Assembly: GCA_030247885.1 (NCBI GenBank)
Contig: JAPDRO010000001.1
Coordinates: 1,550,001-1,614,000 of the forward strand
DNA: 64,000 bases
Direction of reading: 5' to 3'
Source: Taxawa tesnikishii (nom. ined.)
Lineage: Eukaryota; Ascomycota; Dothideomycetes; Dothideales
Both the position numbers and the translations under genes were made by a program. This document shows, one piece after another, positions 3,318-63,387 of the stretch (its first letter is position 1; every line of letters starts with the position of its first letter). The notes under the pieces are model-generated. The model ran no database searches. It saw only the letters and a list, made by a program, of their open reading frames with translations, and had not been told where the DNA came from.

Positions 3318-5367
3318 ATGATGTCGCGCTATCTGCAATTTGATCTCTCGTCCATCACCGCTCACATGCCGCAATTATCTGGCTTGTTCTATGCCATTGT
3401 GCCATACGCAGTCGTTGTCGGCAGTGCTTACTACACCTTCCTTGCGATATATCGCCTTTACTTCCATCCACTCGCAAGTTTTCCTGGCCCATGGATGGCC
3501 GCGGTCACAGACATGTACGCTGCCTATTACGACGTAGTAAAGGGAGGGAGTTCGTCAAGCATCTGCCAGATCTGCACAGGAAGTATGGGCCAATGTAAGC
3601 ACTACCTTGCAAACCGCACCTTCCCTTGCCCAGATAAATCTGAACCAGCGGTTGTTCACAGTGTCCGCATCCTGCCAGATCAGCTACACGTCGACGACAT
3701 CGACTCCTACAATGAGTAAGTGGTAACGCCTCACTGGTAACGTCCCACTGGTACGGAACACGCCAACAGGACACTGTTGACTGCTAACCAAGCGGATCCC
3801 AAAAACAGAGTCTTCAAGATCGGGACAAAGTATACCAAAGACCCCTCCTTCCTGCCCTTTGCCGGCTCTCTCTTCGCCATTCTGGACGTCCCAACCGCCA
3901 AAAAGCGCAAAGACGCCTATACGCCGTACTTCTCACGTTCCGCAATCCGAAAGATTGAACCGCTCATCCACACGATCGTTGCCCGCTGGACCAAGCAGCT
4001 TCATCAGTATGCTGAGAGCGGACGAGCAGTCGACATCAGCCGCGCCTCCAGATGTCTGACGTTGGATGTGATCACGCAGTATTGCTTCTCGCAAGAAGTG
4101 AACGCCGTTCAGGCGGAAGGGTTCCAAGTGGGGTTTCTAGAAGCGCTGGACAAGACGCACGCGTCTATGAACGTTGCGAAGTACTTTCCGTGGTTCTTGA
4201 GCCTTATGGAGAGGAGCGTGGGATCGCTGATGCCCAGATGGATGCAGGACGTCTGCTTCCCTGGGGCTGCGAGCTTTACGCATTTCGTGATAGTAGGTTT
4301 TCCTCGTTCGCAATGTCGGTTCCTTTTCGATGCCTCCAGAAAGACAACCTGCGAAAGAAGATCCGATGGGGCGAAGGAGCAGGGACCTGTTGTGTATCAC
4401 CTGAAAGGCGTAGACAGCTAATGGGGGATCCGACAGGATTGTCAAAACCACATGCGCTCGCTCGCCAGCAAGCCGAGACCCGAGGACGCATACCCAACCG
4501 TCTTCGACAACCTCATCAACCCTTCCGAGGACGGCAACACCAAGGCCAAACCTGCACTGACTGACGAACAACTCACCACAGAAGCCGTTCTGCTCATTGG
4601 AGCAGGCATGGACACCACAGCCACGGCGCTCGTCGTCGCCGTGTACAACCTCACGACACACCCCTCCGCCCTCGAGACCCTCCAGCGCGAACTCAAGCAG
4701 GCACTCCAATCGCCGCAACCTTCACCTCGACCCGACCCTCCCAACGGCAACCCAGAGACCGGCTCCGGACTCCAAAGTCTCGTTCCCCTATCCCTGGACC
4801 AAGTCGAACATCTCCCCTACTTGACCGCGGTGCTGAAGGAGTCCCTCCGCCTCTCGTACGGCGTACCGGGCCCCATCTCACGCATCGTGCCGCCCGGCGG
4901 GGCCACCATCGCCGGGCGCAAGGTACCCGCAGGCGCGGCAGTCAGTCACAGCGCCTTCCTCTACCACACCGATGCGAGCGCATTCCCCGAGCCCGGAGTC
5001 TGGAGGCCCGAACGATGGATCGAGGCAGACCCGAATCAGGAGCACGAGATGAAGCGGGCGTGGATGCCGTTTTCGCGGGGAGCAGGCAGTGCCTGGGAAT
5101 GAAGTGAGTAGTCTTATTTCCCTCTGCCCCTGACTTGTGTGTCAATCTCTGCCGAGGCCGTATGAAAGCGTGGACGAGTGCTGACGAGTTGGGGGGGTTA
5201 AAAACAGTCTCGCCTGGGCCGAGCTGTATCTCGCCATCGCGAATCTGCTCACCCAGTTTGATATTGAGAATGCGGGAACGACAGAGCAGGACATGCAGTG
5301 GCGGGACCGTCTCATCACGGTGCCCGACGGACATTTGAGAGTGCTGCTGCGTGCCAAGAGCGTTTGA
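3318..5367 (+). CDS. Cytochrome P450 monooxygenase (two single-base frame breaks)
   Basis: Haem-thiolate monooxygenase, ER-anchored by an N-terminal membrane segment (about residues 15-40) followed by the YRLYFHPLASFPGPW proline hinge. Exons: 3318-3594, 3662-3715, 3770-4292, 4437-5103 and 5208-5367. Seen motifs: I-helix GAGMDTTA, K-helix KESLRLSYG (ExxR), WRPERW and the haem region FSRGAG..CLGMN. Two places need one extra base to keep the family frame: near 3546-3550 (before EFVKHLPDLHRKYGP) and at 5085-5090, immediately before the haem cysteine. With both, summed exons are an exact multiple of three (560 aa, normal length). Read literally, the protein stops at residue one after GSAWE and lacks the haem Cys. 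It is either a very young pseudogene or, more likely given the window-wide pattern, intact with consensus errors. Resembles trichodiene-oxygenase-type P450s in general pattern; substrate unknown. Confidence 0.88.
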
Positions 5368-5742
5368 CCGGAGCGGTAGAAAATGAGGTCGGTGGAAATC
5401 GGATTCTGGCGTGCAGAATGGAGCGCCAGGCAGATCTGTCGCTTGTATTCTCGTGTTGTTGCTGTTGCTATTCAATGCCATCCTCCTTCTCAAACAGACG
5501 CTGTGTCCTCTACCTCCTGTGTGGCTTCAATCCCAGAGACCTTCGAAAAGGGTCCATCTCCAGTCCAAAAGAAGAAGAAGAAGAAAAAACGCAATACGGA
5601 CAAATGTCAAAGGAAAACGAGGGTATACCCAAAACGCCGCGCTGAAAACAAATACCCAGCAAGAAAGAGAAGAGCCCTCTCCCCGTGTCCCGACTCCACA
5701 GCCGATTTCGGGTCCCGGGATTTGCCGTAGGCCTGACCTCGA
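5368..5742. other. Convergent 3' region
   Basis: 375 bp between the convergent 3' ends of the P450 and the gene at 5743. Contains an A-rich tract (gaag/aaaa around 5570-5590) and a pyrimidine-rich stretch, plausible 3'-UTR sequence. No gene seen. Confidence 0.6.
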
Positions 5743-61106: not shown

Positions 61107-61868
61107 TAGGAAGGAGGAGCTGTAGACCCGCTACAGTAGTAAAACAGTGGATACGAGAGAATGAGAGACGAAACGAAAGACGCAGTGCAGAGTGAGATGC
61201 TCGAAGGTGGCAAGAAGCCACACTGATATAGAGAAGTCGAAGGTCCGACCTAACCGAGCCGCCGTGGAAGCAATAGCGGCTCCACGTCCATCACTCACCG
61301 TGATCAAGTTCTATACTCCAGAATGAGTCTTGCTAAACTGAGGGAACGAATGGCAATCATGTTGGCGTCCTCCTGCTCGATCCAGGTACAGACTGGAATG
61401 TGACTTGGCGCTGTGTTCGGGCGGTCTCTAAGCGCCGACCTCCATGTGACTTGTATGGAAGCGCTGGGCCTACTTCAAGGGGTACCTCGGCGCGTTTGCG
61501 ATTCGATCGCATGGCGTACAGAAACTCGGAGGTTCCTGATTCTGTTCGCTGGCAGAGCGGGTATGGGTTTGACTGTGCTGGGTTGCTGATAGCGTCGTCT
61601 CAGTCCGTGGAGCGTCGAAGAAAGTCCTTCGTCCTGTTGTGAGGCACCAGACGACTGCCGGATACTGGGTTTCACTGTTGGCTGACTTTGACCAAGCTGG
61701 CTGCAAGACAGGGGAACAACGGACAATGGTTGTTGTCGAAATTGAGGTGGAGGCAGCACGAAAATGGAGGAACTTGACAACCACGTGGCTTCATAGGCCA
61801 GTCTATTATGCTATGATTACACACTTCAACCCTTAGGGACCATTTCCCATACCCAACATGCTCGCTGT
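61107..61868. other. Intergenic region
   Basis: 762 bp upstream of the gene at 59190 and downstream of RPT5. Promoter and 3' UTR; the short ORFs on both strands lack recognisable motifs. Confidence 0.6.
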
Positions 61869-63387
61869 TTAAGCATAAAAATTTGCCGTGTCCTTCTTCT
61901 TTGCCGTGACTTCGGAGATAGCATCGACGTAGTGCTCGTGGCTGATCTTGCTCTGCCCACTCCTGAGGGCAATCATACCGGCTTCCACACAGACGGCCTT
62001 CAGCATAGCACCACCAAATTCGTCTGTGCTCCTCGCCAATTCGCCCCAATTTACACCCTCATCAACCGTCATCTTGCGGCTGTGAATGCGAAGAATTTGG
62101 GCACGAGACTCCTCATTGGGCAGTGGGAACTCGATCTTCCTGTCCAGACGACCCGACCGCAGCAAGGCGGGATCCAGGACGTCGACTCTGTTCGTGGCAG
62201 CAAGAACCTTGATTCTGTCGTCGCTAGCGAATCCATCAAGCTGGTTCAGAAGCTCCAACATGGTCCGTTGCACCTCACGGTCACCGGACTTCTCGGAGTC
62301 GAAACGCTTGGTACCCACGGCGTCGAGTTCGTCAATGAAAATGATCGAAGGGGCCTTCTCCTTGGCAAGAGCGAAGCAGTCCCGAACCAGCTTGGCGCCG
62401 TCACCAATGAACATCTGCACCAGTTGGGGGCCAGCGAGTTTGAGGAAAGTAGCCTCTGTCTGAGCGGCACAAGCACGGGCGAGGAGCGTCTTGCCGGTTC
62501 CGGGGGTCCGTACATCAGAGCACCTGTGAGCCATTGTCAGCAAAGAAACCAGAGGATGAGATTTTACAATCGCGCAGGAGCGTACCCTTTGGTGCCTTGA
62601 TACCAATCTTCTTGAACCTCTCTGCTTCCTTCATCGGCCAAACAACCGCCTCGACCAGCTCTTCTATTTGCTTGTCCAGACCACCGACATCAGTGTACTT
62701 CTCCGTAGGCTTCTCATCCACCTCCATAGCCTTGACTCTGCTGTCGTACTCTGCAGGCAGGGTGTCGAGGACGAGGTAAGAGTCTTTGTTCACACCGATG
62801 AGATCGCCAGGCTTGAGCTTCTCGTGGTCGACAAGGCCGATAAGCGGGAGGAAGATGGTCTGACGGGTGGATGTCTTGATGACGGCGGACTTGCCAACAC
62901 GGGTGGCATCGAGGTCGATGTTGGCACCTTCCTCAGCAGCTTCAGCGCTGACATCGAGATCAAGGATTTCGACAACGTTGCCGACGAGATACGGTAGTTG
63001 CCTGCATCATGCGTAAGACAAATACGTTTAAGGGATAGTTTCTTGTTCGGAGTTGTTGATAGCATACCTGTTGTTGTCGATCTTATCCACGTTGTCCTTG
63101 ATCTTGTCTTGCATAGCTTGCTTCTCGTGCGTTAACCGCTGGAACTCGCTCTTCATGATCCTCGTGTCGTTCTCCAGTAGTCGCCTCCGCGAAATGATGT
63201 CTCGTGTGCTTGAGTTGAGTATCTCCATATCTACAACGTCTTGCTCCTTCTCCTCTTCCTTCTTATTGTCACCATCTGCGTCCTTCATCTCAGCATCGCC
63301 GCCCTCGTTGGGCTTCTTCTGCTCCTTGTCGTCTCCCTCCTTCTTTCCATCGCGCTCCATGTCATCGAGATCCTCCAACGTAGACAT
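61869..63387 (-). CDS. RPT5: 26S proteasome regulatory ATPase Rpt5
   Basis: AAA ATPase of the 19S base that unfolds substrates and opens the 20S gate. Exons 63068-63387, 62586-63001 and 61869-62523; 463 aa. The start MSTLEDLDDMERDGKK is chosen over an in-frame extension to 63603 that is atypical. After an acidic leader and coiled coil (RLLENDTRIMKSEFQRLTHE) comes the OB domain, DVGGLDKQIEELVEAVVWPM, and the AAA core: Walker A GPPGTGKTLLARA, Walker B IIFIDELDAVG, sensor/arginine fingers ATNRVDVLDPALLRSGRLDR, and C-terminal NFYA (HbYX-type gate-opening tail). In Walker A one G is missing on the plus strand (run 62502-62506): literal reading is GPPEPARRS. As Rpt5 is essential in fungi, this must be an assembly error rather than a real mutation. 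It shares a 325-bp divergent promoter with COX16. Confidence 0.97.

What the first reader, a model, noticed from the sequence alone, without database searches (positions are those of the whole stretch)
3546..62506. Window-wide pattern of single-base losses in homopolymers of conserved genes
At least 13 genes need one or two bases restored to recover the family frame: P450 (3546, 5087), 5743-7319 gene (5874), nitrate reductase (15990, 15283), acetate transporter (19732), aminotransferase (26596), LAMMER kinase (31981), SRP19 (33262), SCS7 (35584), MFS (39136, 39359), TDG (42622), RPA43 (56764), J-protein (58236) and RPT5 (62502). All are losses, never single gains, and most sit in runs of three to six identical bases. 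In each gene the corrected exon sum is exactly divisible by three and the joined protein matches the family motifs. Because RPT5 is essential and its Walker A is hit, sequencing or consensus error is the simplest cause. A biological cause (recoding) would be remarkable but needs positive proof.
Basis: partly seen in the sequence, partly recalled or inferred. Interest (0 to 1): 0.7.

Follow-up and report, generated by a model that had tools for sequence, protein, structure and literature searches.

The report
Missing bases from genome assembly errors
Many genes in this stretch of a fungal genome appear broken by a single missing base, but the pattern fits ordinary sequencing and assembly mistakes in runs of identical letters and not new biology.

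Summary
At 18 sites that I located, 10 in the window and 8 elsewhere, the frame always moves as if one base were missing. 17 of 18 touch a printed run of at least 3 bases (6.3 expected), 11 of 18 a run of at least 4 (1.7 expected). No gain was verified; some net +1 shifts stay unresolved. Breaks occur elsewhere: RPT6, CCT5, an Hsp70, and RPT1 on another contig. Three, probably four, of six proteasome ATPases are broken as printed. Losses per printed run rise from 1/7609 (length 2) to 3/47 (length 5). Strong blind calls are denser on two contigs (16 in 50 kb coding, two of them introns) than elsewhere (1 in 62 kb). Slippery heptamers lie near only 3 of 18. Recoding is not excluded without reads or RNA (about 1%).

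The parts
62499..62503 (-). Frame break inside Walker A of RPT5 (26S proteasome ATPase), next to a printed run of five C
   Evidence: downstream frame matches the RPT5 chain 6ef1_M to its last residue; one base short
15279..15286 (-). Frame break in the molybdopterin domain of nitrate reductase, at a printed run of four C
   Evidence: Pfam Oxidored_molyb 1-133 and 132-169 in two frames, no gap; blind HMM loss at 15258
42621..42628 (+). Frame break in a uracil/thymine-DNA glycosylase gene, at a printed run of four C
   Evidence: UDG match up to 42587; strongest blind HMM loss; one search found no solved relative for the downstream piece
31978..31982 (+). Frame break in the last kinase subdomain of a LAMMER-type kinase, at a printed run of four T
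   Evidence: HMM call at 31986 at penalty 1e-4, weak in the retrained model
19716..19720 (-). Frame break near the C-terminus of the acetate transporter (GPR1/FUN34/YaaH), at a printed run of three C
   Evidence: motif recalled; blind HMM loss at 19690
5082..5086 (+). Frame break inside the heme-binding motif of a cytochrome P450
   Evidence: (best p450 stretch ends at 5081, profile 407 of 462); longest run in the interval is only 2; not called by the HMM
3543..3550 (+). Frame break in the N-terminal part of the same P450, at a printed run of three G
   Evidence: motif recalled; not called by the HMM
35584..35591 (+). Possible frame break at the C-terminus of SCS7, at a printed run of four C
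   Evidence: downstream motif recalled, the HMM does not need it
5874..5875 (-). Blind HMM loss in the 5743-7319 gene (no Pfam match)
15985..15990 (-). Blind HMM loss in the N-terminal part of nitrate reductase
56764..56781 (-). HMM loss near the start of RPA43
   Evidence: (OB domain), at penalty 1e-4; absent from the retrained model
58236..58247 (+). HMM loss in the J-protein gene
   Evidence: (weak DnaJ match, below the curated cut-off), at penalty 3e-4, weak
46477..46484 (-).
   Evidence: inferred from frames, the HMM sees the pair as one net +1 shift at 46380
46436..46443 (-). Second of two probable one-base losses in NPR2
24597..24599 (+). Unresolved net +1 shift (one gain or two losses) at a printed run of five A in an unidentified gene
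   Evidence: no Pfam match
35421..35466 (+). 46-base GT...AG stretch in SCS7 that reads as a short intron; explains a net +1 HMM call, not a frame error
   Evidence: (solved-structure matches end at 35414 and resume at 35461 with no residue missing); exact splice sites inferred

Best explanation
The breaks are errors in the printed consensus. The assembly (34 contigs, 29.4 Mb) was most likely built from noisy long reads, and in runs of identical bases the consensus is often one base short. In coding DNA each such error shifts the frame by -1, so conserved genes look cut in two. The real genes are intact. Shown: the frame breaks, their loss direction at the placed sites, their link to run length, their presence in essential genes on several contigs, their uneven density over contigs in the sample. 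Inferred: the platform, and that incomplete polishing explains why some contigs are worse.
For: 18 of 18 placed sites have the phase of one missing base; 17 of 18 touch a printed run of 3 or more (6.3 expected), 11 of 18 a run of 4 or more (1.7 expected). Placed losses per printed run in predicted coding DNA of ten C1/C3 stretches: 1 of 7609 (length 2), 6 of 1433 (3), 8 of 270 (4), 3 of 47 (5). Breaks fixed on both sides by tools outside the window: RPT6, CCT5, an Hsp70; RPT1 on C29 read from three frames (name recalled). RPT5 has no second copy: the next match is 61% identical. The ten chaperonin-type loci fit eight CCT, one Hsp60 and one Fab1-type gene, so no spare set (assignment recalled). 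Strong blind calls (delta logL 5 or more): 16 in 50.3 kb coding on C1/C3 including the window, 1 in 62.2 kb on other contigs (P 2.5e-5); two of the 16 read as introns, 14 against 1 still gives P 1.1e-4. Two inverted near-copies of mitochondrial DNA on C25 differ by A8/A7 and T9/T8, besides 8 clustered substitutions, in a 4.3 kb stretch. Published precedent in fungi: homopolymer errors of nanopore-only assemblies shift reading frames (PMC7500977, PMC9453082, passages seen).
Against: The printed spectrum of run lengths shows no clear difference between C1/C3 and the other contigs, so there is no visible mass truncation of long runs. One P450 break has no run longer than 2. Slippery heptamers are somewhat more frequent near the sites than expected (3 of 18; P 0.015 against coding positions next to runs). 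The nanopore paper on Drechmeria reports errors that were more often over-long runs, so direction alone does not fix the platform. No reads were seen.
Confidence: 0.95

Rival explanations
1. Widespread recoding: the DNA really lacks the bases and the ribosome slips back one base, or RNA polymerase or an RNA editor adds a base, at short homopolymers, restoring full-length protein.
For: All placed shifts need the same -1 move and 17 of 18 sit at runs; 3 of 18 sites have an in-frame X XXY YYZ heptamer near, more than the conditional background of 2.9%.
Against: 15 of 18 have no such heptamer; runs of 3-5 C or G are too short and too common for specific slippage (inference); essential genes such as RPT5, RPT6, CCT5 would need near-complete recoding (inference); a mechanism acting in trans should not be so uneven between contigs.
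Confidence: 0.01
2. Real loss-of-function mutations: the genes are pseudogenes, with intact copies elsewhere or in another nucleus.
For: Frames are broken as printed; accessory genes such as the P450 could be lost without harm.
Against: RPT5 has no second copy; the chaperonin loci leave no spare CCT set; RPT5, RPT6, RPT1 and probably RPT2 are hit out of six proteasomal ATPase loci; the flanks on both sides stay conserved.
Confidence: 0.02
3. Misread introns: the frame changes are short introns or unusual splice sites.
For: Several HMM calls read so to me: 35404, 47375, L003:2238, L013:949, L031:1453, L035:3009.
Against: At the 18 placed sites -1 to +5 bases lie between the last and first conserved codon, far too few for an intron.
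Confidence: 0.02

Closest known systems
Homopolymer indel errors in nanopore-only fungal assemblies (Drechmeria coniospora, PMC7500977; ascomycetes, PMC9453082; passages seen)
   Same: Single-base indels in homopolymers break conserved genes; the first paper counts runs of 4 or more and finds exceptions specific to one genome; the second ties the errors to coverage
   Different: In the first paper the errors were more often over-long runs; here only losses were verified. Platform of this assembly unknown
Residual deletion errors after long-read polishing (Homopolish, PMC8011154, passages seen)
   Same: Polishing can leave a consensus dominated by deletions, mainly indels in homopolymers, that shift reading frames
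   Different: The passages seen concern bacteria, one yeast and one phage
Programmed -1 ribosomal frameshifting (recalled)
   Same: A -1 move at repeated bases would restore these frames
   Different: Needs a slippery heptamer and usually a downstream structure; 15 of 18 sites lack the heptamer

Membership tests
Long-read consensus (homopolymer) error | Single-base indels of one main direction | tested here: met
   18 of 18 placed sites have the phase of one lost base; HMM calls at delta 5 or more: 13 losses (one, L003:2238, reads as an intron) and 4 net gains (35393 an intron, 46380 two losses, 24599 and L032:3743 unresolved)
Long-read consensus (homopolymer) error | Risk rises with run length | tested here: met
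   0.0001, 0.004, 0.03, 0.06 placed losses per printed run of 2, 3, 4, 5
Long-read consensus (homopolymer) error | Independent of gene function, present in other parts of the genome | tested here: met
Long-read consensus (homopolymer) error | Long runs depleted in the affected contigs compared with cleaner ones | tested here: not met
   no clear difference; small numbers at length 6 and more (coding runs of 6 or more: 1 on C1/C3, 2 elsewhere)
Long-read consensus (homopolymer) error | Reads contradict the printed base | not testable with these tools
   no reads available
Programmed -1 frameshifting | In-frame X XXY YYZ slippery heptamer at the site | tested here: not met
   3 of 18 within about four codons, one of them (NPR2) outside the break interval
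Programmed -1 frameshifting | Downstream stimulatory structure | not tested
   -
Pseudogenes with intact copies | A second intact copy exists or the gene is dispensable | tested here: not met
   RPT5: next match 61% identical; chaperonin loci leave no spare set. Not tested for the P450, MFS and other accessory genes

The most novel reading that the evidence does not exclude
A fungus whose nuclear genes, essential ones included, carry thousands of real one-base deletions in short homopolymers, tolerated because translation or transcription slips by one base there, more so on some chromosomes.
Probability: 0.01. Interest if true: 0.95.

Novelty: not a real feature. Interest (0 to 1): 0.07.

Why it matters
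It warns against calling pseudogenes, truncated proteins or recoding from this assembly, above all from contigs C1 and C3. If recoding were true it would be a new mode of decoding, but nothing here favours it over error.

Tried and rejected
Run-length truncation: I first took the near absence of runs longer than 6-7 in the window as a sign of truncation. The other contigs show much the same spectrum, so I dropped it.

Contig-only hypothesis: among 28 conserved loci, breaks that I accepted fell in 7 of 9 loci on C1/C3 and 0 of 19 elsewhere, with 3 of the 19 (L001, L008, L009) undecided (my reading, tested). I noticed this after seeing the data. It is not exclusive: RPT1 on C29 is broken too. 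I keep only 'denser on C1/C3 in this sample'.

HMM net gains: 35404 (46-base intron in SCS7), 47375 (intron in NPR2), 46380 (two losses), 62517 (RPT5, where homology gives a loss), L007:2018 (two losses), all by my reading. L032:3743, L080:3027, 24597 and the weak 36422/36624 pair are unresolved; 28014 and 33275, called only at 1e-3, were not followed; L006:623 had no weight. HMM losses that read as introns: L003:2238, L013:949, L031:1453, L035:3009. Not decided: L001:365, L008:2281, L009:1302, L032:3506, L062:2846, L066:2069, L072:2464, L086:549. Three net gains on the last base of a stretch (L002, L007, L032) were dropped as end effects before counting.

Noncoding RNA test: 44 of the 47 5S copies listed (47 of 1720 candidates were scored) span exactly 120 bases, the others 119, 122 and 99. 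At about one error per 4 kb these are too few bases to decide, and the copies are diverse. An 18S-type query found nothing, and the Rfam 18S search failed. COX1 on C26 against C25 gave two one-base gaps, but the copies are 89% identical, so it is no clean control.

(RPT2) was made in the wrong frame by my mistake; its empty answer means nothing. One search (downstream glycosylase piece against solved structures) found nothing. One search matched L007 in one frame only, so it does not test the two losses read there.
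Full report
What was checked. The window is C1:1550001-1614000 of a 29.37 Mb, 34-contig genome with no relatives held; its genes (SCS7, NPR2, LAMMER-type kinase) and introns mark it as a filamentous fungus (inference).

The sites. The HMM of the 16 sites as losses at penalties up to 3e-4, beside 5 net gains. 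In controls it calls no shift in 25 synthetic intact genes, finds 15 of 15 synthetic losses and 13 of 15 gains, and calls one loss and one gain in the reversed window. Homology fixes some sites to a few bases: nitrate reductase 15283 (Pfam 1-133 then 132-169) and RPT5 62502 (the downstream frame matches an RPT5 chain from PGTGKT to its last residue; GALMYGPP stands in the other frame). The best P450 stretch ends 6 bases before 5087. Five sites stay weak or unsupported (26596, 33262, 35584, 39136, 39359). NPR2, not on the list, reads as two further losses.

Elsewhere in the genome. I ran the HMM over 28 conserved loci (107 kb) and 30 loci around 5S genes (94 kb). It made 24 calls; three on the last base of a stretch were dropped, and I read three frames at the other 21. 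RPT6: one frame matches chain residues up to 173, the next starts at 175, and the codons of 174 and 175 share a base. CCT5: one frame ends at residue 401, the next begins at 402, sharing one base. An Hsp70 (SSZ1-like by recall) switches frame between profile positions 265 and 266. LHS1-, NOP56-, RPT2- and AAA-type genes show the same by frames (names partly recalled). A gene on C29 that I take for RPT1 is broken at Walker B next to a run of five T. The search with RPT5 lists six loci at 47% identity or more over 130 residues or more, which I take for the six proteasomal ATPases: three on C1, one each on C11, C12, C29. RPT5, RPT6 and RPT1 are broken, RPT2 probably (HMM call and recalled motif; its solved-structure search was made in the wrong frame). 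The C11 gene runs in one frame through its AAA domain to a stop; the C12 gene was not seen. A class I tRNA-synthetase gene on C1 has 8 stops inside its match and a second match in another frame, while the two other strong matches, on C14 and C15, are clean; weaker matches of that call were not judged.

Direction and runs. At 18 sites (10 window, 8 elsewhere; chosen by me; RPT1 came later and is not included) the frame change is always that of one lost base, and -1 to +5 bases separate the last and first conserved codons, so no intron fits. 17 of 18 intervals touch a printed run of 3 or more (6.3 expected from random intervals of the window), 11 a run of 4 or more (1.7), 3 a run of 5 (0.3). My choice of flanking residues could favour runs in unclear cases; the four sites fixed by tools on both sides (nitrate reductase, RPT6, CCT5, Hsp70) all have runs of 4 or 5. 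Placed losses per printed run rise with length.

Contigs. With a model retrained on all 59 stretches, calls with delta logL of 5 or more are: window 5 losses and 3 net gains in 29.5 kb coding; other C1/C3 loci 7 losses and 1 net gain in 20.8 kb; all other contigs 1 loss in 62.2 kb (P 2.5e-5). Two of the 16 read as introns (35393, L003:2238); 14 against 1 gives P 1.1e-4. The contrast was noticed after the data were seen, and C29 shows that it is not absolute. It suits contigs of unequal consensus quality better than a recoding machinery that acts on all mRNAs.

Results against this reading. Run-length spectra show no clear difference between affected and other contigs. Canonical -1 heptamers lie near 3 of 18 sites, against 1.3% of coding codons of the window and 2.9% of those next to a run of 3 or more (P 0.015); one of the three (NPR2) is outside the break interval. 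One P450 break has no run over 2. The 5S genes neither help nor hurt.

Literature. Passages of PMC7500977 describe nanopore-only assemblies of a fungus: the visible part of one sentence says that '... than one-sixth' of the conserved genes were predicted full length, most errors lay in homopolymers, and short reads corrected the run lengths. PMC9453082 (passages) ties homopolymer indels in ascomycete assemblies to coverage. PMC8011154 (passages) tabulates deletion-rich residues after polishing. One search for genome-wide programmed frameshifting in fungal nuclear genes listed a single paper, on weak stop codons.

Verdict.

Noticed in passing
L055 (C26:20274-24299) against L053 (C25:29468-33808): COX1 on contig C26 is a mosaic: stretches of up to a few hundred bases identical to COX1 on C25 alternate with much less similar stretches (89% overall), with two one-base gaps and internal stops; gene conversion, two mitochondrial types or cross-mapping during polishing are possible.
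   Followed up: partly
L053 and L054 (C25:29468-33808 and 65340-69680): The 80 kb contig C25 carries two inverted, 99.8% identical copies of the COX1 region, differing by 8 clustered substitutions and two run lengths; probably an assembly fold-back of the mitochondrial genome.
   Followed up: partly
L058-L087: The dispersed 5S rRNA genes of this genome are diverse: 5 to 30 columns differ from the consensus among copies read in one orientation.
   Followed up: no
   Followed up: yes
window 24597: Net +1 frame shift at a printed run of five A in an unidentified gene; one gain or two losses.
   Followed up: partly
window 8136-8148: A run of 13 C, longer than any other run in the window (the next is 8).
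   Followed up: no
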